Source of the DNA: Pseudolabrys sp. | Lineage (GTDB): Bacteria > Pseudomonadota > Alphaproteobacteria > Rhizobiales > Xanthobacteraceae | Direction of reading: 5' to 3' | Length of the DNA: 64,000 nucleotides | Assembly (NCBI GenBank): GCA_017849615.1 | Contig: JAFIGS010000001.1 | Span: 1-64,000, forward strand | Part shown: piece by piece, positions 319 to 17,112 of the stretch | Numbering within the stretch: position 1 is the first letter of the stretch | Layout of the letters: each line of letters opens with the position of its first letter | Translations under genes and position numbers: made by a program | Notes under the pieces: generated by a model | Seen by the model: only the letters and a program-made list of their open reading frames with translations | Told to the model about the DNA's origin: nothing | The model's database searches: none

Positions 319-342
319 CATCGGTTCAGCGATATTGCTTCC

Positions 343-3495: not shown

Positions 3496-3501
3496 CTATC
3501 C

Positions 3502-3608: not shown

Positions 3609-3657
3609 GAGATCCAAGGGACTCGCGTTTCCTGCGTCGCGCCCTACATAACCCCGC

Positions 3658-4689
3658 ATGACTGAAACCAGTTTAGATCTCATGGCCAATTCCCCCGACA
3701 TTTCCCTCCCCGAGCGTGCCCCGTCCGCCGTGTCGATCGACGACGCGGTGACGCCGTTCGAGGTCGCGAGCCTCGATCTGCGCGGCCGCCTCGTGCGGCT
3801 CGGACCGATGGTCGACGAAATCCTGTCGAAACACGCCTATCCGCTGCCGGTCGCCAAGTTGCTGGGCGAAGCCATCGTGCTGACGGTGATGCTCGGCTCG
3901 GCGCTGAAAATGCAGGGCCGCTTCATCCTGCAAGCCCAGACCGACGGTCCCGTCGGCCTGCTGGTCGTGGACTACACCACCCCCGGCCACGTCCGCGCCT
4001 GCGCCCGCTACGGCGCCCCCGGTGTCGAGGCGTTGGTCGCGGCGGGCGAAGCCACCTCCGGCAATCTGCTCGGCAAGGGCCATCTCGCCATGACCATCGA
4101 TCAGGGCGAGAACACGCAGCGCTATCAGGGCCTCGTCGCGCTCGATGGCGCCTCGCTCGAGGACGCCGCGCATGAATACTTCCTGCGTTCGGAGCAGATT
4201 CCGACGCGCGTGCGTCTCGCGGTGGCCGAAGAGATCAAGCCGGGCACCGGCGCCGGCAGCCATCGCTGGCGCGCCGGCGGCGTCATGCTGCAATTCCTGC
4301 CTAAGTCGCAGACGCGCGCCCAAACGGATTTGCACCCGGGCGACGCCCCGGAAGGGCTCGAGGTCGCGCCGGTGATCGAGGATGAGGCCTGGGTGCAGGG
4401 CCGCGCGTTGCTCGAGACCGTCGAGGACATCGAGCTGATCGATCCGGACCTGTCGAGCGAGCGTTTGGCCTACCGGCTGTTCAACGAGCCCGGCGTGCGC
4501 GTGTTCAATGCGCAGGAGGTCAAGGCGAAGTGCTCGTGCTCGCGCGACGCCGTCGAGGCCATGCTCAAGAGCTTCTCGCAGGACGACCGCGACCACATGG
4601 TCGAGGACGGCCGGATTTCGGTGACCTGCGAGTTCTGCAGCTCGACCTATGTGTTCCAGCCGGAAGACGTCGGCGCCAAAGCCAACTGA
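3658..4689 (+). CDS. hslO: Redox-regulated chaperone Hsp33
   Basis: A 343-residue Hsp33. The family is a cytoplasmic holdase switched on by oxidation of four zinc-binding cysteines. Those cysteines are present as C292-x-C294 (KCSCS) and C324-x-x-C327 (CEFC) at the C-terminus. The N-terminal chaperone domain includes GPVGLLVVDY and the motif NLLGKGHLAMTID. The start at 3658 adds an acidic N-terminal leader common in alphaproteobacterial members; ATG at 3682 (MANSPDIS) is an alternative. In related genomes the gene follows argF, as here. A clear terminator follows at 4741-4780. Confidence 0.95.
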   Translation: MTETSLDLMANSPDISLPERAPSAVSIDDAVTPFEVASLDLRGRLVRLGPMVDEILSKHAYPLPVAKLLGEAIVLTVMLGSALKMQGRFILQAQTDGPVGLLVVDYTTPGHVRACARYGAPGVEALVAAGEATSGNLLGKGHLAMTIDQGENTQRYQGLVALDGASLEDAAHEYFLRSEQIPTRVRLAVAEEIKPGTGAGSHRWRAGGVMLQFLPKSQTRAQTDLHPGDAPEGLEVAPVIEDEAWVQGRALLETVEDIELIDPDLSSERLAYRLFNEPGVRVFNAQEVKAKCSCSRDAVEAMLKSFSQDDRDHMVEDGRISVTCEFCSSTYVFQPEDVGAKAN

Positions 4690-4740
4690 TCGGGCAATTA
4701 ACTCTGCGCGCGCATTAACCTTGCGGTGGATGCGATAAAA

Positions 4741-4780
4741 CGGCCCGACTCTCGGTCAGAGAGTTGGGCCGATGTTTTTT
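4741..4780 (+). terminator. Rho-independent terminator of hslO
   Basis: A 13-base-pair stem CGGCCCGACTCTC / GAGAGTTGGGCCG with a GGTCA loop is followed by ATGTTTTTT. The ATG in the T tract is the first possible start of the next open frame, which argues against using it as a translation start. Confidence 0.8.
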
Positions 4781-5575
4781 CCATCCACAGAACTCCGCTC
4801 ACCCCCGCGAAGGCGGGGGTCCAGAAAGCGAAATAACTGGGTCCCCGCTTTCGCGGGGACGAGCGGGCTATTGATGGCAGCGCTCTTCGTATCCTCGCCG
4901 ACGCTCGCGCAAACCTGCCCGGCGCCGCTCGCGAATGCACGCAAGCTCGTGCTCGTCACGCCCGTCACTCTGATAAGCACATCCGCAACGATGCGGCGCT
5001 ATACGCGTTCGGCAGCCGGCGCGTCCTGGCGTGCCGATGGCGGCCCGATCACGGCGACCATCGGCCGTAACGGCACGGCGTGGTCCAACGCGTTTCGCAA
5101 CTACGCCGTTGCCGGCGAGCCGGTGAAGGTCGATGGCGACAAGCGCGTGCCGGCCGGCATCTATCCGCTCGGCCGCAGCTTCGGTTTCGCCCCGTCGCGG
5201 CTGCGCGGCTACATGCGTATCGATGACGGCATGACCTGCGTCGACGATCCGTCTTCGCCGGCCTACAACACCATCACCTCGCGCGCGAAGGTCGGCTGGA
5301 AAGTCAGCGGCGAGAACATGTGGCGCATTCCCGAATATCGCCGCGGCCTGGTGGTCGATTATCCGACCGACCGCGCGGCCAAGGCCGGCTCCTGCATCTT
5401 CATTCATGTGCGCAAACCTGGCGCGCCCGGCACGGCCGGTTGCGTATCCCTGCCGGAAGCCGATGTCGAAGGTCTGCAGCACTTTGCCTCGGGCGGCGCG
5501 GTGCTGGCCATTGTGCCGCACGCGGCGCTTGGCCGCTTCGCGGGTTGCTTGCCGATCGAGGCGTTGCCGAACTAG
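4772..5575 (+). CDS. Secreted L,D-transpeptidase (YkuD/ErfK family)
   Basis: 267 residues from the first ATG. The C-terminal YkuD-type motif is visible: IHVRKPG (catalytic histidine) then GTAGCVSLPEAD with the nucleophilic cysteine; serine replaces the arginine that usually follows. Such enzymes form 3-3 peptidoglycan cross-links or attach proteins to the wall in the periplasm. The start is uncertain. ATG 4772 lies in the hslO terminator and translation would cross a palindromic repeat; ATG 4874 would leave only MAALFVSSPTLAQ before the mature protein, too short for a normal signal peptide. The signal seems interrupted or rebuilt by the repeat. Its stop shares an ACTAGT palindrome with the stop of convergent apaG. 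Confidence 0.75.
   Translation: MFFPSTELRSPPRRRGSRKRNNWVPAFAGTSGLLMAALFVSSPTLAQTCPAPLANARKLVLVTPVTLISTSATMRRYTRSAAGASWRADGGPITATIGRNGTAWSNAFRNYAVAGEPVKVDGDKRVPAGIYPLGRSFGFAPSRLRGYMRIDDGMTCVDDPSSPAYNTITSRAKVGWKVSGENMWRIPEYRRGLVVDYPTDRAAKAGSCIFIHVRKPGAPGTAGCVSLPEADVEGLQHFASGGAVLAIVPHAALGRFAGCLPIEALPN
4796..4865. repeat. Palindromic repeat, family B
   Basis: Outer CGCTC/GAGCG ends enclose hairpins CCCCCGCGAAGGCGGGGG and GTCCCCGCTTTCGCGGGGAC joined by a variable spacer. The repeat is entirely inside the open frame of the L,D-transpeptidase and reads through as an arginine/alanine-rich segment including VPAFAGTS, a translation typical of this repeat class. Relatives are at 27948, 47108, 55431 and 58558. 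Confidence 0.85.
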
Positions 5576-5967
5576 TTGAGAATGCGCTTGCCGCTGTGCG
5601 GCGCGTCGAGCGAGAATGCGGGGATGTCGATGTCGAAGGGCCGGCCGTCATCGGTGATCATGCCGTAGGAGCCTTCCATGAAACCCGAAGGCGTCGGCAG
5701 CGGCACGCCACTGGTATATTCATAGGATTCACCGGGCTTGAGCACCGGCTCTTCGCCCACGACGCCGGGGCCTTTCACTTCCTGCAGCCGGCCGTGGGCG
5801 TCGGTTATTCTCCAGTGCCGGGTCTTGAGCTGCACGGTCTCGTCGCTGCCGTTGACGATGTCGATCGTGTAGGCCCAGAAAAAATAGCCGCTTGCGGGCG
5901 AGGACCGGTCGGGAAGGAAGCGGGGCGTGACGGTCACCTCGATCTTGCGGGTTACGGCGCGGTACAT
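5572..5967 (-). CDS. apaG: ApaG domain protein
   Basis: 131 residues, matching the ApaG (DUF525) family: VTPRFLPDRSSPASGYFFWAYTIDIVNGSDETVQL followed by RHWRITDAHGRLQEVKGPGVVGEEPVLKPGE and a C-terminal SGVPLPTPSGFMEGSYGM. These are the conserved fibronectin-III-like fold segments. ApaG has been linked to Co2+/Mg2+ resistance and to diadenosine tetraphosphate control, but its biochemical role is unsettled. The gene converges on the L,D-transpeptidase gene with a four-base overlap at the stop codons. Start ATG at 5967 gives the standard MYRAVT opening. Confidence 0.93.
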   Translation of the reverse strand: MYRAVTRKIEVTVTPRFLPDRSSPASGYFFWAYTIDIVNGSDETVQLKTRHWRITDAHGRLQEVKGPGVVGEEPVLKPGESYEYTSGVPLPTPSGFMEGSYGMITDDGRPFDIDIPAFSLDAPHSGKRILN

Positions 5968-6060
5968 CTATATGCCTTAATTCGATACGACGATTGTTAT
6001 GGCCGTTCGCGCGACTCGCGGCGATTATGGCCGAAGCAATGGACGAAAGAAAAGCGGTCT

Positions 6061-7212
6061 ATGGCCCCGACCTCGAGCGAACGAGACCTGCGCCTCGACC
6101 TGTTCCGCGGGCTCGCCCTGTGGCTCATCTTTCTGGACCACATCCCCGCCAATGCCGTGAGCTGGGTCACGATCCGCAATTACGGCTTTTCCGACGCGAC
6201 CGAAATTTTCGTCTTCATCTCCGGTTACACCGTGGCCTTCGTCTACGGGCGGGCGATGCAGATCAACGGTTTCATCGTTGCAGGTGCGCGCGTGCTCAAG
6301 CGTGCCTGGCAGATCTATATCGCGCACGTTTTCCTGTTCGCCATCTATCTGGCCGAGATTTCCTACATCTCGCACTCGTTCGAGAACCCGCTCTTCACTG
6401 AAGAAATGGGCGTGCTGAACTTCCTGCAAAATCCGGACGTCACAATCATTCAGGCGCTGCTCCTGAAATTCAAGCCGGTAAACATGGACGTTCTGCCGCT
6501 CTACATTGTCCTGCTGGTGTTTTTCCCGCCGTTCTTGTGGCTGCTGCTGCGCTCGCCGGGCCTCGCGCTTCTGGCGTCCGGCGCGATCTATGCATTGGCC
6601 TACATTTTCAACTGGAACCTGCCGGCCTGGCCGCAGGGCGATTGGGTGTTCAATCCCTTCGCCTGGCAGTTCCTGTTCGTGTTCGGCGGCTGGTGTGCGC
6701 TGGGCGGCGCGGCCCGGTTGTCGCGCGTGATCAGTTCGCCGATCACGCTGGCGCTTGCCGTGCTCTATTTGCTGTTCGCCTTCGCCATCGTCCTGACGTG
6801 GTATTTCCCGCCGCTCGGCGCCTACGTGCCGGACATCATCAGCGACAACATCTATCCGATCGACAAGGCCGGAATGGATATCCTTCGCGTCCTGCATTTC
6901 CTGTCACTGGCCGTCATTACGGTGCGGCTGGTGCCGCGCGACTGGCCGGCTCTGAAGTCGCCTTTCTTCAGGCCAGCTATTCTGTGCGGCCAGCATTCGC
7001 TCGGCATCTTCTGTCTCGGCGTATTCCTGTCCTTCGCCGGGCACTTTATCTTCACCGAGGTCTCCAACCGGATCCCGGTCCAGTTCCTGGTCAGCGCTGC
7101 GGGCATTCTCATTATGGCCGGCGCCGCTTGGCTGATTTCGTGGTATAAACGCATCGAAAGACAGGGGCCGCGACCGCCGGTAACGAAGCCGGGTTTCGCG
7201 GGGGGCGAGTGA
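6061..7212 (+). CDS. opgC: OpgC-type membrane acyltransferase
   Basis: 383 residues with about ten hydrophobic segments. The N-terminus RDLRLDLFRGLALWLIFLDH and the following NYGFSDATEIFVFISGYTVAFVYGR are typical of the OpgC family, which adds succinyl groups to osmoregulated periplasmic glucans in Rhodobacter. The longer open frame begins far upstream, but the conserved protein starts at ATG 6061. The gene overlaps the next by one base (TGATG) and is followed by two SGNH-fold secreted proteins, a pairing that suggests acyl transfer across the membrane onto, or removal from, a periplasmic sugar polymer. The glucan synthesis genes opgGH are not in the window, so the actual acceptor is unknown. 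Confidence 0.88.
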   Translation: MAPTSSERDLRLDLFRGLALWLIFLDHIPANAVSWVTIRNYGFSDATEIFVFISGYTVAFVYGRAMQINGFIVAGARVLKRAWQIYIAHVFLFAIYLAEISYISHSFENPLFTEEMGVLNFLQNPDVTIIQALLLKFKPVNMDVLPLYIVLLVFFPPFLWLLLRSPGLALLASGAIYALAYIFNWNLPAWPQGDWVFNPFAWQFLFVFGGWCALGGAARLSRVISSPITLALAVLYLLFAFAIVLTWYFPPLGAYVPDIISDNIYPIDKAGMDILRVLHFLSLAVITVRLVPRDWPALKSPFFRPAILCGQHSLGIFCLGVFLSFAGHFIFTEVSNRIPVQFLVSAAGILIMAGAAWLISWYKRIERQGPRPPVTKPGFAGGE

Positions 7213-8000
7213 TGAAAGGACGGCAAACCGCTGTGAAAGCCGTGTCGGCTTCGGCATGCCTTGCCGCGCTATGGCTTATTGTGGGCCCCGGCGCGATGGG
7301 CGCGGCCTGGGCGGGTCCGCCGCTGAGCTGCCGCGTCGACGGCATTCCCGGCGACATGGCGTTCCCGCTGAAATTCGTCAAACAGGCGATCGGCAATAAA
7401 AAGCTATCGATTCTCGTCGTCGGCACCGGTTCGTCTCAACTCGGCGGCGCGGCGCAGAATGCCTATCCTGCGCGGCTGCAGGTGGCGCTCGCCAAGCTGC
7501 TGCCGGAGGTGGCGGTGACGGTGGCCGTGGACGTCGCCCAGAGGCGGACTGCGGCCGACATGGTTAAAACCCTGCCACCGGCCCTGGCAGCCTCGGACCC
7601 CGATCTGGTCCTGTGGCAGACGGCGACCGTCGATGCGATCCAGGCCGTAGACCCCGACCAGTTCAGCCAGGCTCTCGACAAAGGCGTCAGGCTGGCGCGC
7701 GCGGCCAAGGCGGACGTCATTTTTATAAACCCGCAGTACAGCCCTCGCACCGAGCTGGTTTTAGCCCTGGGAACCTATGTCGAAAACATGCGGTGGGTGG
7801 CGGTTCGCCAGGAAGTTCCGGTTTTCGACCGGTTCAATCTGATGAAAGCCTGGTACGAGCAGGGCACGTTTGACCTCTATTCGACGACCAAAAAACTTGA
7901 TATGGCTGGTCTTGTACATGACTGCCTCGGGCGCCTTCTGGCCGATCTCATCGTCGACGCCGCGAAGCCGGACCCGGCCGTCATCGAAAAGGGCAAATAA
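7212..8000 (+). CDS. Secreted SGNH-fold protein lacking catalytic residues
   Basis: 262 residues with an N-terminal signal (hydrophobic stretch to about residue 34, AWAG). It aligns along its length with the next gene product: VVGTGSSQLGGAAQNAYPARLQV matches its block I region, DLVLWQTATVDAI matches DLVLWQLGTNSLI, and INPQYSPR matches IDPQYAPK. However the block III asparagine is V140, and the Asp-x-x-His of block V is replaced by STTKKLDMAGL. It is therefore probably not an active esterase, unless it uses a different set of residues. ATG 7212 overlaps the opgC stop; a GTG at 7209 is also possible. It may act as a binding or scaffolding partner of the active paralogue. Confidence 0.75.
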   Translation: MKGRQTAVKAVSASACLAALWLIVGPGAMGAAWAGPPLSCRVDGIPGDMAFPLKFVKQAIGNKKLSILVVGTGSSQLGGAAQNAYPARLQVALAKLLPEVAVTVAVDVAQRRTAADMVKTLPPALAASDPDLVLWQTATVDAIQAVDPDQFSQALDKGVRLARAAKADVIFINPQYSPRTELVLALGTYVENMRWVAVRQEVPVFDRFNLMKAWYEQGTFDLYSTTKKLDMAGLVHDCLGRLLADLIVDAAKPDPAVIEKGK

Positions 8001-8021
8001 ACTGCCGCTGGGACCCAAATC

Positions 8022-8840
8022 GTGACCTACCTCGATTTCGCCGGCCGGGCGATGACATCGCTTGCCGCCGCGCTCTTGCTGTTTGTTACTCCGGCCCAAG
8101 CCGAAACAACCAAGCCGCCTTGCCGAACGCAGCAGGATCTCATCCGTCTCGGCGGATCGCTCTCGCATGTCGCGAGCAAGATCGACGCCGGCAAGCTTGT
8201 GACCGTCGTCGCCATCGGCTCGTCATCCACCGCCGGCGCCGGCGCGACATCGCCGGCCACGAGTTATCCCAGCCGCCTCGCCGTCGAATTGCAGCAGCAA
8301 TTCCCGAAAGCGCGCTTCAACGTGATCAACCAGGGCGTCAACGGCGAAGAGGTGCCGGAGATGCTGCGCCGTTTCGACGAAGCGGTCATCGCCAACAAGC
8401 CTGATCTCGTGCTCTGGCAGCTTGGCACCAATTCGCTGATCCGCGATCATCAGATGGGCGACCGCGGCGCGTCGATCCGCTCCGGTCTCGAGAAGATCCG
8501 CAACGCTGGCGCCGACGCGGTGCTGATCGATCCGCAATATGCGCCGAAGGTCATCGCCAAGCCGCTCGCGCCGCAAATGGTTGACTTCATCGCCGAGGTT
8601 TCCAAGGCGGAGAATGTCGGGCTGTTCCGTCGCTTCGAGGTGATGAAGCACTGGAGCGAAGTCGAAGGCATTCCATTCGACGCCTTCGTCATCGCGGACG
8701 GCCTGCATATGAACGACTGGGGTTATTCGTGCATGGCGCACAGCCTCGGCGTCGGCATTGCCGAGGCGGTGCAGCGTCCGATCGTGGCGGCCAAGGCCGT
8801 GGCGACGAAGACCGCGGCGCCTGCGGTGCTCGCCCCGTAG
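8022..8840 (+). CDS. Secreted SGNH/GDSL-type hydrolase
   Basis: 272 residues with a signal peptide ending near AQA (residue 27). SGNH blocks are present: AIGSSST (65-71, nucleophile serine), NQGVNGEE (103-110, oxyanion glycine), LGTNS (134-138, asparagine) and ADGLHMNDWGY (225-235, Asp-His). This predicts a periplasmic esterase or acyltransferase of the GDSL class. The start is GTG 8022, which gives a normal signal peptide. The gene lies 22 bases after its degenerate paralogue and in the opgC operon, so its substrate may be an acylated periplasmic or surface glycan. It converges on metZ with a 13-base gap. Confidence 0.85.
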   Translation: MTYLDFAGRAMTSLAAALLLFVTPAQAETTKPPCRTQQDLIRLGGSLSHVASKIDAGKLVTVVAIGSSSTAGAGATSPATSYPSRLAVELQQQFPKARFNVINQGVNGEEVPEMLRRFDEAVIANKPDLVLWQLGTNSLIRDHQMGDRGASIRSGLEKIRNAGADAVLIDPQYAPKVIAKPLAPQMVDFIAEVSKAENVGLFRRFEVMKHWSEVEGIPFDAFVIADGLHMNDWGYSCMAHSLGVGIAEAVQRPIVAAKAVATKTAAPAVLAP

Positions 8841-8853
8841 GGCGGGCGTCGCG

Positions 8854-10047
8854 TCAGACCTTTTCCAGCGCGGCCAGCAGGTCCTCGGCGATGTCGTCCG
8901 GGTGTTCGAGCCCGCATGACAGCCGCACGAGGCCGTCGCCGATGCCGAGTTCGGCGCGCTGATCCGGCGTCAGGCGCTGATGCGTCGTCGTCGTCGGATG
9001 CGTGATCAGACTCTTGGCGTCGCCGAGGTTGTTGGTGATCAGGATCAGATTGAGCGCGTTGAGGAAGCGGAACGCGCCTTCCTTGCCGCCCTTGATCTCG
9101 AAGGCGATCAGCGTCGATCCGGCCTTCATCTGCTTCTTCACGATATCGGCCTGCGGATGGTCGGCGCGACCGGGATAGATCAGCCGCGTCAGCTTGTCGT
9201 GGCCGGCGAGCTTGTCGGCGACGAACGCCGCGGTCTTGGTCTGGCGCTCGACACGCACGCTGAGCGTTTCGAGGCCCTTGAGCAGCACCCAGGCATTGAA
9301 CGGCGGCAGGGTCGGGCCGGTCTGGCGCAGCAGGTTGTGATAGTGGTCGGCGATGATTTTCTCGCTGGCGAGAATGACGCCGCCGAGCACGCGACCCTGG
9401 CCGTCAATGTGCTTGGTCGCGGAATAAACGACGACATCCGCGCCGAGCTGCAGCGGGCTCTGGTACAGCGGCGTCGCGAACACGTTATCGACGACCAGCC
9501 TGGCGCCGGCGCCATGCGCGATCTCGGCGATCGCGGCAATGTCATAGACCTCGAGCGTCGGATTGGTCGGCGTTTCCAGGAACAGAACCTTGGTCTCCTT
9601 GCGCACCGCCTTGCGCCAGGCGTCCAGATCGACGCCATCGACCAATGTGAAAGTGACGCCGAAGCGCGACAGCCAGTCCTCGATGACCCAGCGACATGAG
9701 CCGAACAAGGCCTTGGCGGCGACGATGTGATCGCCGGCCTTGACCAGCCCCATCAGCGCGTTGGTCACCGCGGCCATGCCGGTGACGGTGGCGCGTGCGG
9801 CCTCGGCGCCTTCCAGCGCGGCCATGCGCTTCTCGAACATGTCCATGGTGGGGTTCGAGTAGCGGGAATAGACGTAGCCCGGGATCTTGCCGGAGAAGCG
9901 CGCCTCGCAGTCCTCGGCGCTCTCGTAGCGGTAGCCCTGCGTCAGGTAGATTGCCTCCGACATCTCGTTGTACTGCGAGCGCAGCGTGCCGGCGTGCACC
10001 AGCCGGGTTTCGGGGCGGTAGTTCTTGGGATCGTTCGACGCCGACAT
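8854..10047 (-). CDS. metZ: O-succinylhomoserine sulfhydrylase
   Basis: 397 residues of a Cys/Met-metabolism PLP enzyme that makes homocysteine from an acylated homoserine and sulfide. The opening NYRPETRLVHAGTLRSQYNE and TQGYRYESAEDCEARF are typical of MetZ. The PLP lysine is in VVYSATKHIDGQGRVLGG, and the C-terminal block SLITHPTTTTHQRL is intact. ATG 10047 is preceded by an AGGAG ribosome-binding site; the upstream in-frame extension runs into the leader terminator and is not used. Transcription is predicted to be controlled by a SAM-II riboswitch 120 bases upstream. MetX at 56662 is a homoserine acetyltransferase, so the true substrate could be O-acetylhomoserine. Confidence 0.93.
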   Translation of the reverse strand: MSASNDPKNYRPETRLVHAGTLRSQYNEMSEAIYLTQGYRYESAEDCEARFSGKIPGYVYSRYSNPTMDMFEKRMAALEGAEAARATVTGMAAVTNALMGLVKAGDHIVAAKALFGSCRWVIEDWLSRFGVTFTLVDGVDLDAWRKAVRKETKVLFLETPTNPTLEVYDIAAIAEIAHGAGARLVVDNVFATPLYQSPLQLGADVVVYSATKHIDGQGRVLGGVILASEKIIADHYHNLLRQTGPTLPPFNAWVLLKGLETLSVRVERQTKTAAFVADKLAGHDKLTRLIYPGRADHPQADIVKKQMKAGSTLIAFEIKGGKEGAFRFLNALNLILITNNLGDAKSLITHPTTTTHQRLTPDQRAELGIGDGLVRLSCGLEHPDDIAEDLLAALEKV

Positions 10048-10086
10048 TGTGGGCTCCTTCGGCCGGACGCGACGGGCGTATGGCCA

Positions 10087-10121
10087 ATAAAAAACCGGCC
10101 GGAGGAAAGTCCTCGGCCGGG
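10087..10121 (-). terminator. Attenuator terminator in metZ leader
   Basis: On the minus strand CCCGGCCGAGGA / TCCTCCGGCCGG forms a GC-rich stem with one bulge, followed by TTTTTTATT. It lies between the SAM-II aptamer and the metZ start, the position expected of a riboswitch expression platform. Confidence 0.85.
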
Positions 10122-10167
10122 CCCATTTTGTCCTCAAGGATTGCGGAGATCCCGGGGCATCATGTTC

Positions 10168-10224
10168 GCGGCCTTTTAGCGAGTTATTTAACGTGGCTGC
10201 AAGCCGGCCGGCTCAAATGACCAC
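10168..10224 (-). promoter_or_regulatory. SAM-II riboswitch of metZ
   Basis: The minus strand reads GTGGTCATTTGAGCCGGCC, then GGCTTGCAGCCACGTTAAA and finally ACTCGCTAAAAGGCC. This is the SAM-II (metA motif) pseudoknot aptamer known from alphaproteobacteria: conserved ATTTGAG, GCTTGCAGCCACGTTAAA and CGCTAAA blocks in order. It is nearly identical to the copy before metX at 56507. SAM binding should promote the downstream terminator and lower MetZ. Confidence 0.93.
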
Positions 10225-10235
10225 GGGATAAGGGG

Positions 10236-10265
10236 CTTTTAGCGGGCTCCGCGGCTTCCCGTCAA
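10236..10265 (-). promoter_or_regulatory. Putative metZ promoter
   Basis: On the minus strand TTGACG (10265-10260), an 18-base gap and TAAAAG (10241-10236) precede the riboswitch so that transcription would begin just before the aptamer, as required. Confidence 0.5.
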
Positions 10266-10294
10266 GCGGCCGGTTGGGTTAGATCGACCCTCAG

Positions 10295-10392
10295 CCTCAT
10301 CCTGAGGAGCGCCGAAGGCGCGTCTCGAAGGATGGGCGGCGGTCGGCCTCGTCCTTCGAGACGGCCGCTATCGCGGCCTCCTCAGGACGAGG
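10295..10392. repeat. Palindromic repeat, family C
   Basis: Outer arms CCTCATCCTGAGGAG / CTCCTCAGGACGAGG and inner arms GTCTCGAAGGATG / CGTCCTTCGAGAC make a long imperfect palindrome typical of the Bradyrhizobium relatives. It ends seven bases before the dcd GTG start, so its terminal GAGG may serve as that gene's ribosome-binding site. Confidence 0.85.
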
Positions 10393-10398
10393 ATTTCG

Positions 10399-11514
10399 GT
10401 GACACTCGCCTTCGCCAAGAACGACAAGGGCATTCTGCCCGACACGATGATCGAGCAGCTCGCCGCCGACGGCGCGATCCGGCGCGAGAAGGATTTCGCG
10501 TCCGACCAGATCCAGCCGGCGAGCCTCGATCTGCGCCTCGGCGCGATGGCTTACCGCGTGCGCGCCTCGTTCCTGCCGGGCACCGCCAAGGTGTCGCAAC
10601 GTATCGACGAGCTGACGCTGCACCAGTTTCCGCTCAAGGACGGCGCCGTGCTGGAGACGGGCTGCGTCTATATCGTGCCGCTGCTCGAAAGTCTGGCGCT
10701 GCCGCCCGACGTTTCTGCCGCCGCCAATCCGAAAAGCTCGACCGGCCGTCTCGACGTTTTCACGCGAGTCATCGCCGACGAGATGCGCGGTTTCGACCGC
10801 ATCGAGGCCGGTTACACCGGCCCGCTTTATGCCGAGATTTCGCCGCGCACTTTTCCGGTGCTGGTGCGTGAAGGTTCGCGCCTGTCGCAGATACGCTTCC
10901 GCCACGGCCGCGCGCAGCTCGATGCCGAGGCGCTGAAGGCGCTGCACAAGGAACAGCGTCTGGTAGATAGCGACGACGCCGATCTGTCGGACGGCATCGC
11001 CGTGAGCGTGGATCTGTCCGGCACGATTGCCGGCGAGGGCAGGGCAGGCATCGTCGGCTACCGCGCCAAGCGCCACACCGCGGTGGTCGATGTCGAGCGC
11101 CGCGCCGGCTACAACGTCGCCGATTTCTGGGAGCCGATCGATGCGCGGCCCGATCAGCGCCTCATCCTCGATCCGGACGAGTTCTACATCCTTGCTTCCA
11201 AGGAAGCGGTGCAGGTGCCGCCCGGCTTCGCCGCCGAGATGGTGCCTTTCGATCCGTTGGTCGGCGAATTCCGCGTCCATTATGCGGGCTTCTTCGATCC
11301 CGGTTTCGGCTATGCCGGCGCTGGCGGCAAAGGCTCGCGCGCGGTGCTCGAAGTGCGCTCACGTGAGGTGCCGTTCATTCTCGAGCACGGCCAGATCGTC
11401 GGCCGCCTCGTCTACGAGACGATGCTCGGCATGCCGAAAACTTTGTATGGCCAAGGCATTGGCTCGAATTATCAGGCGCAGAGCCTGAAGCTGTCCAAGC
11501 ATTTCAAGGTCTAG
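10399..11514 (+). CDS. dcd: 2'-deoxycytidine 5'-triphosphate deaminase (long form)
   Basis: 371 residues, about twice the length of E. coli Dcd, matching the alphaproteobacterial two-domain form. The first half contains SDQIQPASLDLRLG and the active-site segment NPKSSTGRLDVFTRVIADE; the second half repeats the dUTPase-type fold with RLILDPDEFYILASKEAVQVP and HYAGFFDPGFGYAG. The enzyme converts dCTP to dUTP for thymidylate synthesis. The GTG start is supported by the family opening ILPDTMIEQL; no upstream ATG is available because the palindromic repeat ends just before. The next gene follows after 70 bases and is not obviously linked in function. Confidence 0.93.
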   Translation: MTLAFAKNDKGILPDTMIEQLAADGAIRREKDFASDQIQPASLDLRLGAMAYRVRASFLPGTAKVSQRIDELTLHQFPLKDGAVLETGCVYIVPLLESLALPPDVSAAANPKSSTGRLDVFTRVIADEMRGFDRIEAGYTGPLYAEISPRTFPVLVREGSRLSQIRFRHGRAQLDAEALKALHKEQRLVDSDDADLSDGIAVSVDLSGTIAGEGRAGIVGYRAKRHTAVVDVERRAGYNVADFWEPIDARPDQRLILDPDEFYILASKEAVQVPPGFAAEMVPFDPLVGEFRVHYAGFFDPGFGYAGAGGKGSRAVLEVRSREVPFILEHGQIVGRLVYETMLGMPKTLYGQGIGSNYQAQSLKLSKHFKV

Positions 11515-11584
11515 GCCTGCGCTGCGCCCGCGAGGAACCCGGCTCTTTGCCCCGGCTTGGTTCCGGTTAGCAGGAGATTTGCGC

Positions 11585-12184
11585 ATGAGCGAACGCCGGA
11601 AAATGGTGGCGGGCGAGCTCTACGACCCGATGGACGACGAACTCGTCGCCGCCCGTATTCGCGCGCGCAATCTGTGCCAGTTGCTGAATGCCACGGCGGA
11701 GGCCGATCAGGATACGCGCCGGCGCATCCTTCAGGAGCTGTTCGGCGCCGGCGGCGATTCCGTGTGGATGCAGCCACCGTTCTATTGCGACTACGGCAGC
11801 AACATCGAACTCGGCGAGCGCGTGTTCTTCAACTTCAACTGCGTTGTGCTCGATGTGTGCCCGGTGCGGATCGGCAGCTTCACCCTGTTCGGCCCGTCGG
11901 TGCAGATTCTCACGGCGATGCATCCGATGAATGCCGAACAGCGCCGCAAGAAAGAGTTCGCCAAGCCGATCGAGATCGGTGCCGATGTCTGGGTCGGCGG
12001 CGGCGCCATCATCCTGCCCGGCGTGCGCATCGGCGATCGCGCCGTGATCGGCGCCGGCAGCGTTGTCACCCGCGACATTCCGGACGGCGTCTTCGCGGCC
12101 GGCAATCCGTGCCGGGTGGTGCGCGAGATTACGGACGATGACGAACGGCCGAACGGCATCGCGCACCCGGCGCGGGGCGCGTGA
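11585..12184 (+). CDS. Maltose/galactoside O-acetyltransferase-like protein
   Basis: 199 residues. Residues 1-60 form the MAC domain (ERRKMVAGELYDPMDDELVAAR and following helices), then a left-handed beta-helix of hexapeptide repeats (INIELG-like turns: IELGERVFFNFNCVVLDVCPVRIG and ADVWVGGGAIILPGVRIGDRAVIGAG). The catalytic histidine is in LTAMHPMNAEQR. The family acetylates sugar hydroxyls with acetyl-CoA; the physiological acceptor is not known here. ATG 11585 has an AGGAG site eight bases upstream; a TTG two codons earlier is less likely. Confidence 0.9.
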   Translation: MSERRKMVAGELYDPMDDELVAARIRARNLCQLLNATAEADQDTRRRILQELFGAGGDSVWMQPPFYCDYGSNIELGERVFFNFNCVVLDVCPVRIGSFTLFGPSVQILTAMHPMNAEQRRKKEFAKPIEIGADVWVGGGAIILPGVRIGDRAVIGAGSVVTRDIPDGVFAAGNPCRVVREITDDDERPNGIAHPARGA

Positions 12185-12235
12185 CCGATATCAGCCTTGA
12201 AGAGATGGGCCCGGACCGGGCTACCGACCTGCGCA

Positions 12236-12688
12236 TCAATATTCGGGACCGTCGTAACCGAGCAGTTCGACATTCGTGGCCGAGCAACGGCTGCAGGTGA
12301 TATCCATCTTGCCGCCGCGCTTCAGGACGTGGATGTGCTGCTCGCTGCCGCCCAGATATTTGCGGACGTAGTCGTCGCCGTGCTTCGAGCGGCCCGACTG
12401 AAACAGATCGAAAAAGGTCAGCACTTTTCCGCAGTTCGAACAGGCGACTTTTTTCCATACGGCATAGTCGCCGGCCTTGCGCGACTTGCCGAGGAACGCG
12501 TTCAACTCCTGCAACTCTTCGGCCGAAACCTTGACGGCGTTCTTCGGGCGACGCCGCAGGCACGACCTGAATACAGGCTTGCTCACCTTGAAGAGCAAAT
12601 CCTCGGCCTGAGGTTTGGCGACATGAGCTTCAACCAGACTTTGCGCAGCGGCCGGGATGAGGCGGCTGAGGTCGACGTGAACAGTCAC
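12236..12688 (-). CDS. Zinc-ribbon protein of unknown function
   Basis: 150 residues. I do not recognise the family. Two CxxC pairs (C83/C86 in CSNC and C132/C135 in CSRC) sit 45 residues apart and should bind one zinc as a split ribbon. Between them lies a charged segment (FDLFQSGRSKHGDDYVRKYLGG). The N-terminal 60 residues are helical without clear motifs. The start is GTG 12688 with a GGGAGAG site. The gene is on the opposite strand to its neighbours and separately transcribed. Confidence 0.65.
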   Translation of the reverse strand: MTVHVDLSRLIPAAAQSLVEAHVAKPQAEDLLFKVSKPVFRSCLRRRPKNAVKVSAEELQELNAFLGKSRKAGDYAVWKKVACSNCGKVLTFFDLFQSGRSKHGDDYVRKYLGGSEQHIHVLKRGGKMDITCSRCSATNVELLGYDGPEY

Positions 12689-12878
12689 GACACTCTCCCT
12701 TGCTATGATCGACAGAGACGACCCGGGATTATGGGCTCATCGCGAGGGTGTCGGAGCGGCATGATGATGCCGCTGGGCCGGGCCGGCAGGAGCCGAATCC
12801 CGGCGACGGGAGCCCCCGATCGCGGAAACAAAGTTCCGCCTGCCGCGTTAGAGGCGTGACCAACCGCAGGGGGCATCC

Positions 12879-13136
12879 ATGAGCATCATCTGGACGATCA
12901 TCATCGGCTTCATCGCCGGCGTCGTGGCCAAGTTCATCTCGCCCGGCCCGAACGAGCCGTCCGGCTTCATCCTCACGACCGTGCTCGGCATCGTCGGCGC
13001 CTTTGTCGCCACCTGGCTCGGCCAGCAGATCGGCTGGTATCAGCCGGGACAGGCGGCCGGCTTCATCGGCGCCGTGGTCGGGGCGATCATCGTGCTGACG
13101 ATCTGGGGCATGATCTCGGGCCGCCGGCAGGGCTAA
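12879..13136 (+). CDS. GlsB/YeaQ/YmgE-family membrane protein
   Basis: 85 residues, three transmembrane helices separated by short glycine-rich turns: SIIWTIIIGFIAGVVAKFI, then GFILTTVLGIVGAFVATWLG, then GFIGAVVGAIIVLTIWG. This is the transglycosylase-associated (YeaQ/YmgE) family of small stress-induced inner-membrane proteins, whose molecular role is not established. An AGGGGG site lies six bases before ATG. Confidence 0.92.
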   Translation: MSIIWTIIIGFIAGVVAKFISPGPNEPSGFILTTVLGIVGAFVATWLGQQIGWYQPGQAAGFIGAVVGAIIVLTIWGMISGRRQG

Positions 13137-13367
13137 CTGCCCCGGCGCTGACAACGACCGTTTAACACGATGGGACAGTCCGAGGCTTTCCCGGCTGCGT
13201 TGGGGGCGTTCGGCCTGCCGATCTGGCCTCATCGGTCGACATCATCCGCGACTTCTCCCCTTCCTTTTTACCCAACCCATGGTTGCGGATGGCGTGATCG
13301 TGTATTTTCATTTGGTGGAATCAGTGAGGTGCAATCGACGTCTCGGCTTTGAACGAGGGGTTTCCCC

Positions 13368-14543
13368 ATGTCAGAAGCGATGTACCGTCTCGACCCGGAC
13401 CTTCCGCCGACCCCTGAAGAGCTGCAGAACAGGCCTCTGACGCCGGCCGAGCAGATATCGCTGCGGCGTCAGGTGACGCATCAATTCCGCGGCGGTGTCA
13501 CGCCCTATCTGAGTTCGCTGATCAAGTCCTCCGAAGCCGTCCGCAAGCAATTCGTTCCCGATTATCTGGAGGGCCTTACCTTCGGCCGCGCCGCGCCCTT
13601 CGAGGAGGGCAAGGAAAACAACGGCATATATGGCCTGGAGCGCGTCTATGCCGACCGGGCGGTGCTGACCCCGTATTTCGATTGCGCCGCCTATTGCCGG
13701 TATTGCTTCAAGAAGACGCGCACCCTCGCCGGCGACGGCCGCGTCATGACGGAAAACGATATCCAGCGGGCGCTCGCCTTCATCGCTGCCGATCGCCGCC
13801 TCGATACCGTGTTGATTACAGGCGGAGATCCGCTGGCCCGGCCGGCCATGCTGGAGGGAATACTCGACGGCGTTTCACGCATCGAGCACGTCACCAAGAT
13901 CCGCATTGGCACACGGCATATCCTGTTCGATCCGGCGCAGGTGACCGATGCGCTGTGCTCGCTTCTGGCGCGCTACAACGGCGTCAGCGTAACCGACCGC
14001 TGGCGCGGCCGCAGCGTTTCCGTCGGCGTGTCGCTCAATCATCCTGACGAACTGACGCCGGAAGTGGTCGCCGCCCTGCAGCGCATCATGCGTGCGGGCA
14101 TTTCCATTCGCGGTCAGGTGGTGCTGCTCAAGGGCATCAATGACGATGCCGGCACGCTGGGCGAACTGCTCAACCGCTTCGTGATGCTGGCGATCGTGCC
14201 GTACTATCTGTTCCACTGCATGGACGTTCTCGGCACTTATCATTTCCGTACGTCGGTGCAGAAGGGCGCTGACATACTCGCGGCGCTGGCGGCGCGCTCC
14301 GGCGTATATGCGCCAACCTATGTCTACGTGACTCCGGTCGGGAAGCATCGCGTCGGCCCCGGCACATCGTTTGATTACCGAACGATCGACGGGCGGCGCT
14401 ACATCCGCGCGGTCTCGCCATACCAGGCTGCGGATTTCCTTGCCTTCTCGGGACGGGACCGCTTGCCACCGCTGCATGAGCGGGGGCCGGACGGCCGTAT
14501 CGTCTCCCATTACCTGGACGGTAACGATGATGCCGTGGCGTGA
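13368..14543 (+). CDS. KamA-family radical SAM protein (divergent lysine 2,3-aminomutase)
   Basis: 391 residues. The radical SAM cluster motif is C106-x3-C110-x2-C113 (CAAYCRYCF), followed by TGGDPL (151-156) and the KamA-family blocks FDPAQVTDAL, SLNHPDELTPEV, RGQVVLLKGIND and HFRTSVQKG. KamA enzymes use PLP and SAM to move an amino group from C2 to C3 of lysine; EpmB does this for EF-P. Here the usual PLP-lysine loop DAPGGGGK is replaced by VTPVGKHRVGPG, with K326 as the probable PLP lysine and no aspartate before it. By recall of the clostridial enzyme that aspartate contacts the lysine side chain, so the substrate may differ. There is no C-terminal zinc region. An AGGGG site precedes the ATG. 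It heads a four-gene group with a polylysine peptide, an ATP-grasp ligase and a JmjC-type oxygenase. Confidence 0.85.
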   Translation: MSEAMYRLDPDLPPTPEELQNRPLTPAEQISLRRQVTHQFRGGVTPYLSSLIKSSEAVRKQFVPDYLEGLTFGRAAPFEEGKENNGIYGLERVYADRAVLTPYFDCAAYCRYCFKKTRTLAGDGRVMTENDIQRALAFIAADRRLDTVLITGGDPLARPAMLEGILDGVSRIEHVTKIRIGTRHILFDPAQVTDALCSLLARYNGVSVTDRWRGRSVSVGVSLNHPDELTPEVVAALQRIMRAGISIRGQVVLLKGINDDAGTLGELLNRFVMLAIVPYYLFHCMDVLGTYHFRTSVQKGADILAALAARSGVYAPTYVYVTPVGKHRVGPGTSFDYRTIDGRRYIRAVSPYQAADFLAFSGRDRLPPLHERGPDGRIVSHYLDGNDDAVA

Positions 14544-14670
14544 GCCCAGCTCCGCGCAGGCGCCGTCGTCCACGAATGTATCCACATCGGAAAGTAGCTA
14601 TTGCTTGAAATATATCTTTTTAGTTGCATGATGAGGTTGCGGTAAACCTGATGATTCGAGAGAGGAACAC

Positions 14671-14757
14671 ATGGTTGAAGCACAGACGAGAAAGCTGAAG
14701 AAAGGCGTGAAGCGGAAGAAGAAGAGCAAAGCCAAAAAGAAGAAAAAGAAGCTCTAG
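14671..14757 (+). CDS. Lysine-rich 28-residue peptide
   Basis: A short frame that an ordinary gene caller would skip. The product is 28 residues: an eight-residue head MVEAQTRK, then L-K-K-G-V-K-R-K-K-K-S-K-A, then six lysines and a final leucine; 14 lysines and two arginines in all. AGAGGA lies six bases before the ATG. The codons mix AAA and AAG, which argues against a simple-sequence artefact. It lies 127 bases after the KamA-type gene and before the ATP-grasp gene on the same strand, in a locally A+T-rich stretch. Possible roles are substrate of the flanking enzymes, a nucleic-acid-binding peptide, or a non-functional frame. No similarity search was possible. Confidence 0.6.
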   Translation: MVEAQTRKLKKGVKRKKKSKAKKKKKKL

Positions 14758-14959
14758 TTTCTGACGTCGCTGCTCCTGACAAGGTGACGCATTCGCTCCG
14801 GCAGAGCGGTCCTGCTTACCGACCTCCAAGCTCGATCGTTCTGCCGGGCTCTTGAGTGCCGAGAATGCCGATCGCGACGCGATCGATCCGGCGGTTCGCG
14901 CCGGACGTGGCGCAGGCCGCGGTTTAGCGGCGCCGTATCAGGTCACATTCCAGAAGCCC

Positions 14960-16279
14960 ATGAGCAAACGGCCGCCGCTGATCGTCTATATCGACGCGCT
15001 TGGCGCTGGGCTTTCGGAGTCGATTGCCGAAGCGGCCGCCGCGCGCGGCATTGCGACGGCGGTGATCTGTCCGCCAGGCGAGATGCGCGGCCGGCGCCAA
15101 TTCGTTTGGCGCGTGATCAGGACGCGCGATTTCAGCCTCGACAATCTGCGCCGTCTGGTGGCCGCGATAGAGCGCAGCCACAGCATTCGCGGCTTCTATT
15201 CGCTGTTCGGGCCGTTTCGCCGCGACGGATTCCTCCATGGCCATGTCGCCACGCTGGCGGCCGAGCGGGGCCTTTCGCATTCGCCGCCTTCGGCGCTGGC
15301 GGCGGCCACCAACAAATTCTTCGCGCGCTATTGCATCGGCGCCGCCGGAGTGCCGGACGTGCCGTTCGGCCTCGCCTTCGATGAAGCCTCGGCGCTGAGC
15401 GTCGCGCGCGGCATCGGCTATCCCGTCGTCCTCAAGCCGCTCACGGGCGTCGGTTCGAGCCTGATCTTCAAATGCCGCAACGATGCCGAACTGCGCAGGT
15501 TCTGGCACAAGGCCAGGCGCGAATTGCCGCGCGCTCACTACGCGCAACTTCGGATGGCCCCGCACAGCATCGCGGCGCCCTGTGGCGCGGTCTTCACGTT
15601 CGATCCGGCCCGAATGATGCTGGTCGAACGCTATCTTCCGGGTCGCGAGGCCAGCGTTGAATGCATTGTCGTCGGCGACAACGTCACGCCTCTGGTCGTC
15701 CATGACAAGCTCGACGTCGAGGAGATCACCGGTTCGGTGCTGGAGCATCTGCTGGTCGCGCCGCCGCTGCGCTTCACGCCGCGCGAGGTGAAGGCGCTGC
15801 GCAGCCACGCCGCCGCCGCGATCCGCGCGCTCGGGCTGCGTAACACTTTGTGCCACGTCGAGCTGCGCTGGGTCGATGGCGAGGGACCGCGTATTCTCGA
15901 AATCAACCCGCGCGTCGGTGCCGGCTGCGTTGCCGACAGCATTGCCACTTTCACCAATGTCGATGCCGATGCCGCGCGGCTGTCGCTCATCCTCGGCGAG
16001 CGCCCCCCGCCGGTGCGCCGGCGCAAGGCGCCGCGCCACGCGATGGTGTTCCTGTTCACGCCGCGCAGCGGCACGATCACCCGGCTCGAGGGGCTCGAGG
16101 CGGTGAACGACTGGGACGACACCGCGGTCGTCCGGGTCATGCAGGAGGTGGGCAATCGCGTCGGCGGCGACCTCGAAGAGGGCTTCGTCGCGAGCATCTG
16201 GCTGGAGGCCAAGAATGAAAAGCAGGCGCGGCAGGCTTATGCGCGCATCCGGCGGCGGGTCCGCATCGTCGTTCGTTGA
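14960..16279 (+). CDS. ATP-grasp ligase
   Basis: 439 residues from ATG 14960 (an upstream TTG at 14852 would add 36 poorly ordered residues). An N-terminal Rossmann-like region (IVYIDALGAGLSESIAEAAAARG) precedes an ATP-grasp fold: K120 in NKFFARY, K159 in YPVVLKPLTGVGSS, VERYLPGREASVE (222-234), HVELRW (299-304) and the metal-binding EINPRVG (314-320). The C-terminal 90 residues resemble the extra domain of L-amino-acid ligases (BacD class). Such enzymes activate a carboxylate as an acyl phosphate and join it to an amine, often an amino acid or peptide. The lysine peptide just upstream is an attractive but unproven amine or carboxylate donor. Its 3' end overlaps the oxygenase gene by 65 bases, implying co-translation. 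Confidence 0.85.
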   Translation: MSKRPPLIVYIDALGAGLSESIAEAAAARGIATAVICPPGEMRGRRQFVWRVIRTRDFSLDNLRRLVAAIERSHSIRGFYSLFGPFRRDGFLHGHVATLAAERGLSHSPPSALAAATNKFFARYCIGAAGVPDVPFGLAFDEASALSVARGIGYPVVLKPLTGVGSSLIFKCRNDAELRRFWHKARRELPRAHYAQLRMAPHSIAAPCGAVFTFDPARMMLVERYLPGREASVECIVVGDNVTPLVVHDKLDVEEITGSVLEHLLVAPPLRFTPREVKALRSHAAAAIRALGLRNTLCHVELRWVDGEGPRILEINPRVGAGCVADSIATFTNVDADAARLSLILGERPPPVRRRKAPRHAMVFLFTPRSGTITRLEGLEAVNDWDDTAVVRVMQEVGNRVGGDLEEGFVASIWLEAKNEKQARQAYARIRRRVRIVVR

Positions 16280-16976
16280 TGGCGGCGATATCCTCCGCAC
16301 GCTGTTCGGTGTGAAACGCGACGCGTTCCTGCGGCGGTTCGGCGGCCGGCGGCATGTCTGCCGCCACGGTCCGCGCCGCCGCTTTCTGGGTCTGCTTGGC
16401 GAGGCGCTGGTTCCCGATATGCGCGCGCTGGCGAAACTGGCGCTGCCCTATGGTCGCGATCTCGGCGCCATCATCTACGACGATCGCGGCGTGCTCGGCA
16501 TGCGCGGGCTCGGCCGCCGCGAACGGGCGCGGATCGACACGCCGGGCGGCATCTATTTTTTCCGGAAATTCGACGAGCGGTTCGAGGAGGTACAGCGCCT
16601 GCGCAGATCGCTGTGCGATGCGCTCGGCTCGCGGCCGAGCGGCGCCCGCATCAGCGCGACGCTGCAGAACCGCAACGCGCTGCTGCCGCGCCACTGCGAT
16701 CGCACCGACGTCTTCATTCTCCAGCTCTTCGGAAGCCGCCGATGGCGGTTGCAGCAGAACAGCGATCCGCCCGCCGGCCTTCACGCGCTGGTGCGCACGC
16801 CGGCGCACCTGCGCAAGGGGTGGAGCGCGGATTTCAAGGGCCCGAGTCCGGTAGTGACGCTCAAGCCGGGCTCGGCGCTATATGTACCGCGCGGCTGTTG
16901 GCACGAGACGCAGTCCTCGGGCCCGTCGCTGGCGCTGGTCATCACCGTTTCGCCGCTTGGAAAGCGCGGCCGCTAG
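16215..16976 (+). CDS. JmjC/cupin_4-type putative 2-oxoglutarate oxygenase
   Basis: 253 residues. The cupin core has H160-x-D162 (RHCDRTDVFILQLFGSRRWRL) and the distal H230 in YVPRGCWHET, the iron triad expected of JmjC/MINA53/YcfD-like oxygenases. That H-x-D plus DVF-x-LQ-x-x-G-x-RRW arrangement is characteristic of the ribosomal-oxygenase-like cupin_4 family, which hydroxylates protein residues. The N-terminal 60 residues are basic. ATG 16215 lies inside the ATP-grasp gene; translation is probably coupled. A hydroxylase next to a KamA protein and a ligase repeats the enzyme types that act on EF-P, though EpmC itself is a different fold. Substrate unknown. Confidence 0.75.
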   Translation: MKSRRGRLMRASGGGSASSFVDGGDILRTLFGVKRDAFLRRFGGRRHVCRHGPRRRFLGLLGEALVPDMRALAKLALPYGRDLGAIIYDDRGVLGMRGLGRRERARIDTPGGIYFFRKFDERFEEVQRLRRSLCDALGSRPSGARISATLQNRNALLPRHCDRTDVFILQLFGSRRWRLQQNSDPPAGLHALVRTPAHLRKGWSADFKGPSPVVTLKPGSALYVPRGCWHETQSSGPSLALVITVSPLGKRGR

Positions 16977-16998
16977 CCCCGCGCATCGGTCGGCGCCC

Positions 16999-17038: not shown

Positions 17039-17112
17039 GCGGGCGTAGTTCAATGGTAGAACGGCAGCTTCCCAAGCTGCATACGAGGGTTCGATTCCCT
17101 TCGCCCGCTCCA
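17039..17112 (+). tRNA. tRNA-Gly (CCC)
   Basis: A full cloverleaf: acceptor GCGGGCG/CGCCCGC, D arm with GTTCAATGGTAGAAC, anticodon stem GCAGC/GCTGC around the loop TTCCCAA (anticodon CCC), and T arm GAGGGTTCGATTCCCTT. The CCA end is encoded. It reads glycine codon GGG. It lies 62 bases after the oxygenase gene. Confidence 0.97.

What the first reader, a model, noticed from the sequence alone, without database searches (positions are those of the whole stretch)
13368..16976. Candidate undescribed modification system: KamA-like radical SAM, polylysine peptide, ATP-grasp ligase and JmjC-type oxygenase
Seen: on one strand, within 3.6 kb, are a divergent lysine-2,3-aminomutase-like protein (CAAYCRYC), a 28-residue peptide with 14 lysines, an ATP-grasp ligase with ATP and metal motifs intact, and a cupin_4 oxygenase with H160-x-D162 and H230. 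The last two overlap by 65 bases. Known: EF-P is modified by an EpmB aminomutase (KamA family), an EpmA ligase and an EpmC hydroxylase, the same three reaction types. Inference: the flanking enzymes may act on the lysine peptide, for example beta-lysine formation, peptide or amino-acid ligation, and hydroxylation, giving an unusual ribosomal peptide product. None of the enzymes here is an Epm orthologue by sequence, so only the logic is shared.
Basis: partly seen in the sequence, partly recalled or inferred. Interest (0 to 1): 0.85.

Follow-up and report, generated by a model that had tools for sequence, protein, structure and literature searches.

The report
Three-enzyme amino-acid-tailoring cassette, Pbo-like
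A bacterium carries a small block of three enzyme genes that probably build an unusual modified dipeptide, a stripped-down cousin of a cassette known from a plant-pathogen gene cluster; the lysine-rich mini-protein beside them is probably not their target.

Summary
In detail: a divergent KamA-type radical SAM gene (13368-14543), a 28-residue peptide with 14 lysines (14671-14757), an ATP-grasp amino-acid ligase (best start 14960) and a JmjC_2 oxygenase (16215-16976). In three congeners this block is absent: ymgE and tRNA-Gly lie 66-67 bp apart, against 3,902 bp here, so the genes came or went as one unit.

The same order is published as pboFGHI of Pseudomonas syringae. None of the five has a lysine-rich short ORF in the row. 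Both Asp positions that hold lysine in lysine aminomutase are replaced here (M285, V321) and absent from the five relatives. Lysine-rich mini-genes ending KKKKL occur elsewhere in the genus without these enzymes.

Best reading: a minimal small-molecule cassette (beta-amino acid formation, ligation, hydroxylation) in which a JmjC enzyme takes PboH's place. Substrates and product are inferred. Against: the window's KamA protein is not closest to the PboF-type by identity, and the window's exact gene set was found nowhere else.

The parts
13368..14543 (+). kam: divergent KamA-type radical SAM protein, 391 aa; CxxxCxxC C106/C110/C113; probable PLP lysine K326; Asp293 and Asp330 of lysine 2,3-aminomutase replaced by M285 and V321
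   Evidence: residue roles recalled
14671..14757 (+). 28-aa peptide with 14 Lys; real-looking ORF with purine-rich upstream stretch; probably a separate mini-gene, not shown to be part of the pathway
   Evidence: genus-wide K-rich mini-genes
14605..14632 (+). promoter-like pair of hexamers upstream of the peptide (1 found, 0.6 expected by chance, so weak)
14960..16279 (+). lig: ATP-grasp / L-amino-acid-ligase-like protein, 439 aa from ATG 14960 (475 aa from TTG 14852)
   Evidence: tree and clade test
16215..16976 (+). jmj: JmjC_2 (cupin_4) oxygenase, 253 aa, H160-x-D162 and H230; overlaps lig by 65 bp
13137..16985 (.). block absent from the same site in three congeners (boundaries approximate)
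12879..13136 (+). ymgE-like conserved left neighbour of the empty site
17039..17112 (+). tRNA-Gly(CCC), conserved right neighbour of the empty site

Best explanation
A laterally mobile, minimal small-molecule cassette of three enzymes. Inferred route: the KamA-type radical SAM/PLP protein shifts the alpha-amino group of a non-basic, probably hydrophobic amino acid to give a beta-amino acid; the ATP-grasp ligase joins it to a second amino acid as a dipeptide; the JmjC_2 oxygenase hydroxylates the amino acid or the dipeptide. It is a variant of the KamA-like / ligase / 2OG-oxygenase / MFS row found in Burkholderia and published as pboFGHI of Pseudomonas syringae, with a JmjC enzyme in place of the PF10014 oxygenase and no adjacent exporter. 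Shown: gene content, intact catalytic motifs, presence or absence as a block, conserved gene order around the closest ligases, a ligase-oxygenase fusion in one genome, loss of both lysine-binding Asp positions. Inferred: substrates, order of steps, product. The lysine-rich peptide is most likely a separate mini-gene.
For: The 5 strongest ligase homologues found (L044, L048, L059, L060, L061; E 5e-47 or better) each have a KamA-like gene directly before and a PF10014-type oxygenase directly after, then an MFS gene (Pfam run on L044 only, the others by tblastn to its proteins). None of the 10 loci with weaker ligase matches (L004, L042, L043, L045, L062-L067) has a kam match; three of these hold under 4 kb. 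In L061 ligase and oxygenase are one 695-aa frame. The window ligase is sister to the PboG-type in the tree (88/88, not starred) and grouping it with six other ligases is rejected (p-AU 0.004). Of 18 correctly read KamA-family rows, only the window and the 5 PboF-type lack Asp at both LAM positions 293 and 330. The block is absent in 3 of 3 congener sites read. Kitasatospora (annotated blsG) and Thioflavicoccus carry KamA-family genes near ATP-grasp genes in biosynthetic surroundings.
Against: The window KamA is more like BlsG (37%) and AblA-like proteins (30-36%) than the PboF-type (27-29%); its tree branch is very long and none of three placements is rejected (p-AU 0.139, 0.351, 0.241). An Asp (D286) lies next to M285, so a shifted contact cannot be excluded. 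LAM Arg134, which holds the substrate carboxylate (recalled), is Lys here. No second genome with the window's kam-lig-jmj set was found. No exporter is adjacent. Pbo protein sequences were not compared directly, only order and domains from the paper. The JmjC_2 relatives best known are ribosomal-protein hydroxylases.
Confidence: 0.6

Rival explanations
1. One reading: the enzymes modify the 28-residue lysine peptide (beta-lysine formation, ligation, hydroxylation) to give a ribosomal peptide product.
For: The peptide lies between kam and lig inside the inserted block and is not a composition artefact. Some ATP-grasp enzymes and JmjC_2 oxygenases act on peptides or proteins (recalled; PDB matches are protein hydroxylases). 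A JmjC_2 relative on a Rahnella plasmid lies near PqqD-like and asnB genes.
Against: No lysine-rich short ORF in the 5 related rows. Lysine-binding Asp positions lost. The ligase belongs with amino-acid ligases (LAL_C2) and with PboG-type proteins. K-rich mini-genes exist in 11 of 35 genus genomes, own included, while no kam or lig orthologue was found in the 35 congeners searched.
Confidence: 0.12
2. The enzymes modify a translation protein, as EpmA/EpmB/EpmC act on EF-P, with the JmjC protein as a ribosomal oxygenase.
For: JmjC_2 matches are MINA53 and NO66; the KamA family contains EpmB.
Against: EpmB model 138 bits against a cut-off of 369. The ligase is ATP-grasp, not a lysyl-tRNA-synthetase-like EpmA (EpmA fold recalled). 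At 253 aa the JmjC protein ends just after the JmjC domain, against 341-467 residues for the better PDB matches. The block is absent in congeners, odd for a core translation function.
Confidence: 0.08
3. Three enzymes that arrived together but do not act in one pathway.
For: No second copy of exactly this set was found in the genome samples searched.
Against: lig and jmj overlap by 65 bp; the order KamA-ligase-oxygenase recurs beside the closest ligases.
Confidence: 0.12
4. A blasticidin-like or diaminopropionate-type conjugate: the KamA protein is an arginine-aminomutase-like enzyme and the ligase attaches its product to another small molecule.
For: Best tblastn identity among the fetched KamA proteins is to the annotated BlsG of Kitasatospora (37%); the shortened loop before the PLP lysine is shared with BlsG.
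Against: Both BlsG rows keep Asp293, the window does not; no nucleoside or NRPS genes flank the block.
Confidence: 0.08

Closest known systems
pboF-pboG-pboH(-pboI) of the Pbo cluster, Pseudomonas syringae pv. phaseolicola (PMC8473136)
   Same: Gene order and enzyme kinds: lysine-2,3-aminomutase-like radical SAM, L-amino-acid-ligase-like ATP-grasp, Fe oxygenase (Table 1 of the paper). Patchy, horizontally moved distribution.
   Different: Pbo has 16 genes with NRPS and PKS parts and MFS genes; its oxygenase is an isoleucine-hydroxylase-like 2OG-Fe dioxygenase, here a JmjC_2 protein with no BLAST similarity worth the name to the Burkholderia PF10014 one (E 1.3). Pbo sequences themselves were not compared.
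KamA-like / ligase / PF10014 / MFS row of Burkholderia cenocepacia (L044) and B. anthina (L048)
   Same: Ligase homologous over nearly its whole length (about 30%), KamA-like upstream, oxygenase downstream overlapping or abutting the ligase.
   Different: MFS gene present; kam-lig gap 47 bp instead of 416 bp; different oxygenase family; no K-rich peptide.
BlsG arginine 2,3-aminomutase with the ATP-grasp gene of an annotated blasticidin-type cluster (Kitasatospora, L047)
   Same: KamA family, shortened PLP-lysine loop, ATP-grasp ligase in the same cluster.
   Different: Keeps Asp293; nucleoside pathway genes around it.
EpmA/EpmB/EpmC modification of EF-P
   Same: Three reaction types are similar in name (recalled).
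   Different: None of the three is an orthologue: EpmB model far below its cut-off; ATP-grasp, not an EpmA-type fold.

Membership tests
PboFGH-type cassette | KamA-like gene directly followed by an LAL-like ATP-grasp gene | tested here: met
   but with a 416-bp gap holding the K-peptide ORF
PboFGH-type cassette | ligase related to the PboG-type above other ligases | tested here: met
   sister in the tree, 88/88, not starred; alternative with six other ligases rejected p-AU 0.004. PboG-type here means the Burkholderia, G990, G1008 and G996 rows, not PboG itself
PboFGH-type cassette | KamA protein in the PboF-type clade | tested here: inconclusive
   p-AU 0.139 for the joint clade; long branch; lower identity than to BlsG
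PboFGH-type cassette | PF10014 2OG-Fe dioxygenase as third gene | tested here: not met
   third gene is JmjC_2 PF08007; no BLAST relation. So: works like it, not filed as a full member
PboFGH-type cassette | adjacent MFS gene | tested here: not met
   tRNA-Gly and a C93 peptidase gene follow
Lysine 2,3-aminomutase | Asp293 and Asp330 for the lysine side-chain amino group | tested here: not met
   M285 and V321 by ungapped alignment to 2a5h; roles recalled
KamA family radical SAM | CxxxCxxC and PLP lysine | tested here: met
   C106, C110, C113; K326 aligned with the PLP lysine region, loop two residues shorter
EpmB | NCBIfam TIGR03821 cut-off | tested here: not met
   138.2 against 369.3 bits
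L-amino acid ligase | ATP-grasp plus LAL C-terminal domain | tested here: met
   ATP-grasp_4 and LAL_C2 above cut-off, the latter by 0.5 bit
JmjC_2 oxygenase | Pfam cut-off and HxD...H metal triad | tested here: met
   57.2 against 22 bits; H160, D162, H230
RiPP precursor plus maturases | precursor peptide conserved beside the enzymes | tested here: not met
   0 of 5 related rows have a short ORF of 12-80 aa with at least 33% Lys; but these rows differ in oxygenase

The most novel reading that the evidence does not exclude
The block is the smallest known form of the Pbo-type logic: a KamA-family enzyme that rearranges a hydrophobic amino acid, a ligase that makes a beta-amino-acid dipeptide, and a JmjC_2 oxygenase recruited from protein hydroxylation to act on a free amino acid or dipeptide. 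It would yield a new class of hydroxylated beta-dipeptides, possibly signals or antimetabolites.
Probability: 0.35. Interest if true: 0.65.

Novelty: new variant of a known kind. Interest (0 to 1): 0.48.

Why it matters
The KamA-ligase-oxygenase trio of the Pbo cluster has been described only by domain, and its product is unknown in the papers seen (PMC8473136, PMC11278893). A three-gene version without NRPS or PKS parts, in a bacterium with no known link to that toxin, would let the chemistry of the trio be tested directly. If the KamA protein accepts a hydrophobic amino acid, it widens what this enzyme family is known to do; a JmjC_2 enzyme on a dipeptide would widen that family too.

Tried and rejected
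Peptide as substrate: rejected as the leading view on three counts (related rows lack it, Asp positions lost, K-rich mini-genes elsewhere in the genus). A homologous origin of the window peptide and the MAKRKKKA...KKKKL mini-genes is not shown: they share the C-terminal part and the CTC-TAG end, 77% over 61 bases, but not the conserved leader, and AAG runs align easily.

Promoter-like site before the peptide: 1 against 0.6 expected, so not used as evidence.

KamA phylogeny: inconclusive. In one search three rows (L025, L026, L034) were read in the wrong frame or strand and were dropped from the residue count; L048 was read from an internal Met but covers the sites shown. PboF-type rows align M or P to position 285 depending on the alignment; Asp in neither.

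Searches that led nowhere: genome-contig scan, 134 pattern matches, 1 relative (B. anthina), with narrow patterns, so absence there says little. Viral contigs: none. JmjC in 289 class genomes: own only at E 1e-18. Ligase profile in 303 genomes of the class of G990 and 49 of its family: only G990 itself at E 1e-30. Literature: ten searches found no paper on this gene set other than the Pbo papers. That covers an open-licence library only.

Structure predictions: JmjC mean pLDDT 32, KamA 51; too poor, no fold search made.
Full report
What is there. On the + strand the window holds kam (13368-14543), a 28-aa lysine-rich ORF (14671-14757), lig (14960-16279, or from TTG 14852) and jmj (16215-16976), followed by tRNA-Gly(CCC) at 17039-17112. 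kam passes the Radical_SAM model and matches lysine 2,3-aminomutase 2a5h at E 3.2e-40, but reaches no NCBIfam cut-off: lysine-2,3-aminomutase-like TIGR03822 194.8 of 396, KamA subfamily 171.6 of 199.2, EpmB 138.2 of 369.3 bits. lig passes ATP-grasp_4 and, by half a bit, LAL_C2; jmj passes JmjC_2 and keeps H160-x-D162 and H230. The lysine peptide is a composition outlier, not chance: 1 such ORF in the window, 0 in each of 40 simulated windows.

The block came or went as a unit. The neighbour gene 11579-12184 has matches at E 1e-30 in 6 of 35 genus genomes, own included. Three of the five others, those with 81-84% identity, were fetched. In all three, ymgE is followed by tRNA-Gly after 66, 66 and 67 bp, against 3,902 bp in the window (sequences). 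Beyond the tRNA the same genes continue in two of them (L082, L083); in L084 they do not. Among 60 genomes searched (own, 35 congeners, 24 of the order), 51 gave some ligase match at E 0.001, but outside the own genome the best is E 1.4e-9, in one of the same order; the best in a congener is E 2.9e-5, short pieces of other ATP-grasp proteins. For kam, 42 of 60 matched, the best outside the own genome at 35% identity, E 9.5e-47; the congener rows put in the tree group with the own genome's second, AblA-like copy. So the 35 congeners searched showed no kam or lig orthologue.

The same logic elsewhere. A tblastn of the ligase against plasmids gave one strong place, in a 3.2-Mb Burkholderia cenocepacia replicon (E 1e-31). 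There the genes run KamA-like (6397-7587 of L044), ligase, PF10014 2OG-Fe dioxygenase, MFS. A profile of the two ligases found three more among 398 genomes of the phylum (G990, G1008, G996; E 7.5e-133 or better) and a scan of genome contigs found B. anthina. All five loci show the same row; L044/L048 and L059/L060 are close pairs, so these are about three independent lines. In G996 ligase and oxygenase are one 695-aa frame, which ties the oxygenase to the ligase's substrate or product. The 10 loci with weaker ligase matches show no kam match, three of them holding under 4 kb. Samples of the order (347 genomes), class (385), the class of G990 (303) and its family (49) gave no further strong match. 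The row is rare and patchy.

Literature. One paper of the library fits: the Pbo cluster of Pseudomonas syringae pv. phaseolicola (PMC8473136; I saw the outline and abstract, part 2 of 6 of the text, the figures-and-tables section and passages). Its Table 1 gives pboE MFS, pboF lysine-2,3-aminomutase-like radical SAM, pboG L-amino-acid-ligase-like ATP-grasp, pboH isoleucine-4-hydroxylase-like 2OG-Fe dioxygenase, pboI MFS. Polar mutants in the pboA operon, pboG included, made no phaseolotoxin; the authors propose an unknown secondary metabolite that takes part in regulation. A 2024 review (PMC11278893, passages only) adds no product. I did not compare Pbo protein sequences; the match is one of order and domains.

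Phylogeny and active site. The window ligase is sister to the five PboG-type ligases (88/88, not starred), and grouping it with six other ligases is rejected, p-AU 0.004. The window KamA sits on a very long branch; joining it to PboF-type, BlsG or AblA-like rows is not rejected (p-AU 0.139, 0.351, 0.241), and by identity it is nearer BlsG (37%) than PboF-type (27-29%). So for kam the tie rests on position and active site, not descent. By the ungapped HMMER alignment to 2a5h, Asp293 is M285 and Asp330 is V321. Of 18 correctly read rows, 12 keep Asp293 and 10 keep Asp330; the 6 without either are the window and the five PboF-type. The roles of these residues, of Arg134 (Lys115 here) and of Lys337 (K326 here) are recalled. 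D286 lies next to M285 and could stand in. The reading that the pocket is hydrophobic and not for lysine is therefore an inference, though it agrees with an isoleucine-hydroxylase-like partner in Pbo.

The lysine peptide. None of the five related rows has a short ORF of 12-80 aa with at least 33% Lys in the stretches searched; their kam-lig gaps are 30, 30, 47, 47 and 53 bp, against 416 bp here. A search of 35 genus genomes with a pattern for four Lys codons, Leu and a stop gave 15 matches in 12 genomes, against 2 for the reversed control pattern. Eleven are mini-genes of 16-22 aa of the type MAKRKKKA...KKKKL with a conserved leader and Shine-Dalgarno-like AGGAGG, in 11 genomes including the own one on another contig; three are longer proteins with poly-Lys tails; one is the window peptide. 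All 15 end in CTC-TAG. The window peptide shares the tail but not the leader. It may be a diverged member or a convergent one; either way lysine-rich peptides in this genus do not need these enzymes.

Mechanism and verdict. The best account is a minimal Pbo-like small-molecule cassette: KamA makes a beta-amino acid, the ligase makes a dipeptide, the JmjC enzyme hydroxylates. JmjC_2 relatives of known function hydroxylate proteins (PDB hits MINA53 E 3.1e-10, NO66), so a protein target cannot be excluded; but this protein is 253 aa, against 341-467 residues for the better PDB matches. No second kam-lig-jmj block was found, no exporter is adjacent and no product is known.

Noticed in passing
G000:C12:5140-5205 (L106) and L093-L097, L099-L103: Mini-genes of 16-22 aa, MAKRKKKA...KKKKL, with a conserved leader (CCCGCCATGTTACATGGCTAGGAGGGCAGCA type) in 11 of 35 genus genomes, own included. 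Function unknown; too small for most annotation pipelines.
   Followed up: partly
L061 5173-7260 (-): One 695-aa frame joins the ATP-grasp ligase and the PF10014 oxygenase in genome G996.
   Followed up: partly
window 12236-12688 (-): A 150-aa ORF without a Pfam match lies in a stretch of the window (about 12135-12820) that does not align with the same site of three congeners; possibly a second small insertion.
   Followed up: no
L113 (Rahnella aquatilis plasmid) 4410-9849: A JmjC_2 relative lies in a row with PqqD-like, methyltransferase, MFS and asnB genes, which looks like a small peptide-product cluster.
   Followed up: no
L046 (Thioflavicoccus mobilis plasmid) 5884-11365: KamA-family gene beside an ATP-grasp gene, an ornithine-cyclodeaminase-like gene, sbnA-like and diaminobutyrate transaminase genes: another KamA plus ATP-grasp biosynthetic row on a conjugative plasmid.
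   Followed up: no
L110 (Azospirillum argentinense plasmid) 1-8220: Annotated arginine 2,3-aminomutase beside NRPS, PKS, TauD-family dioxygenase and aminotransferase genes.
   Followed up: no
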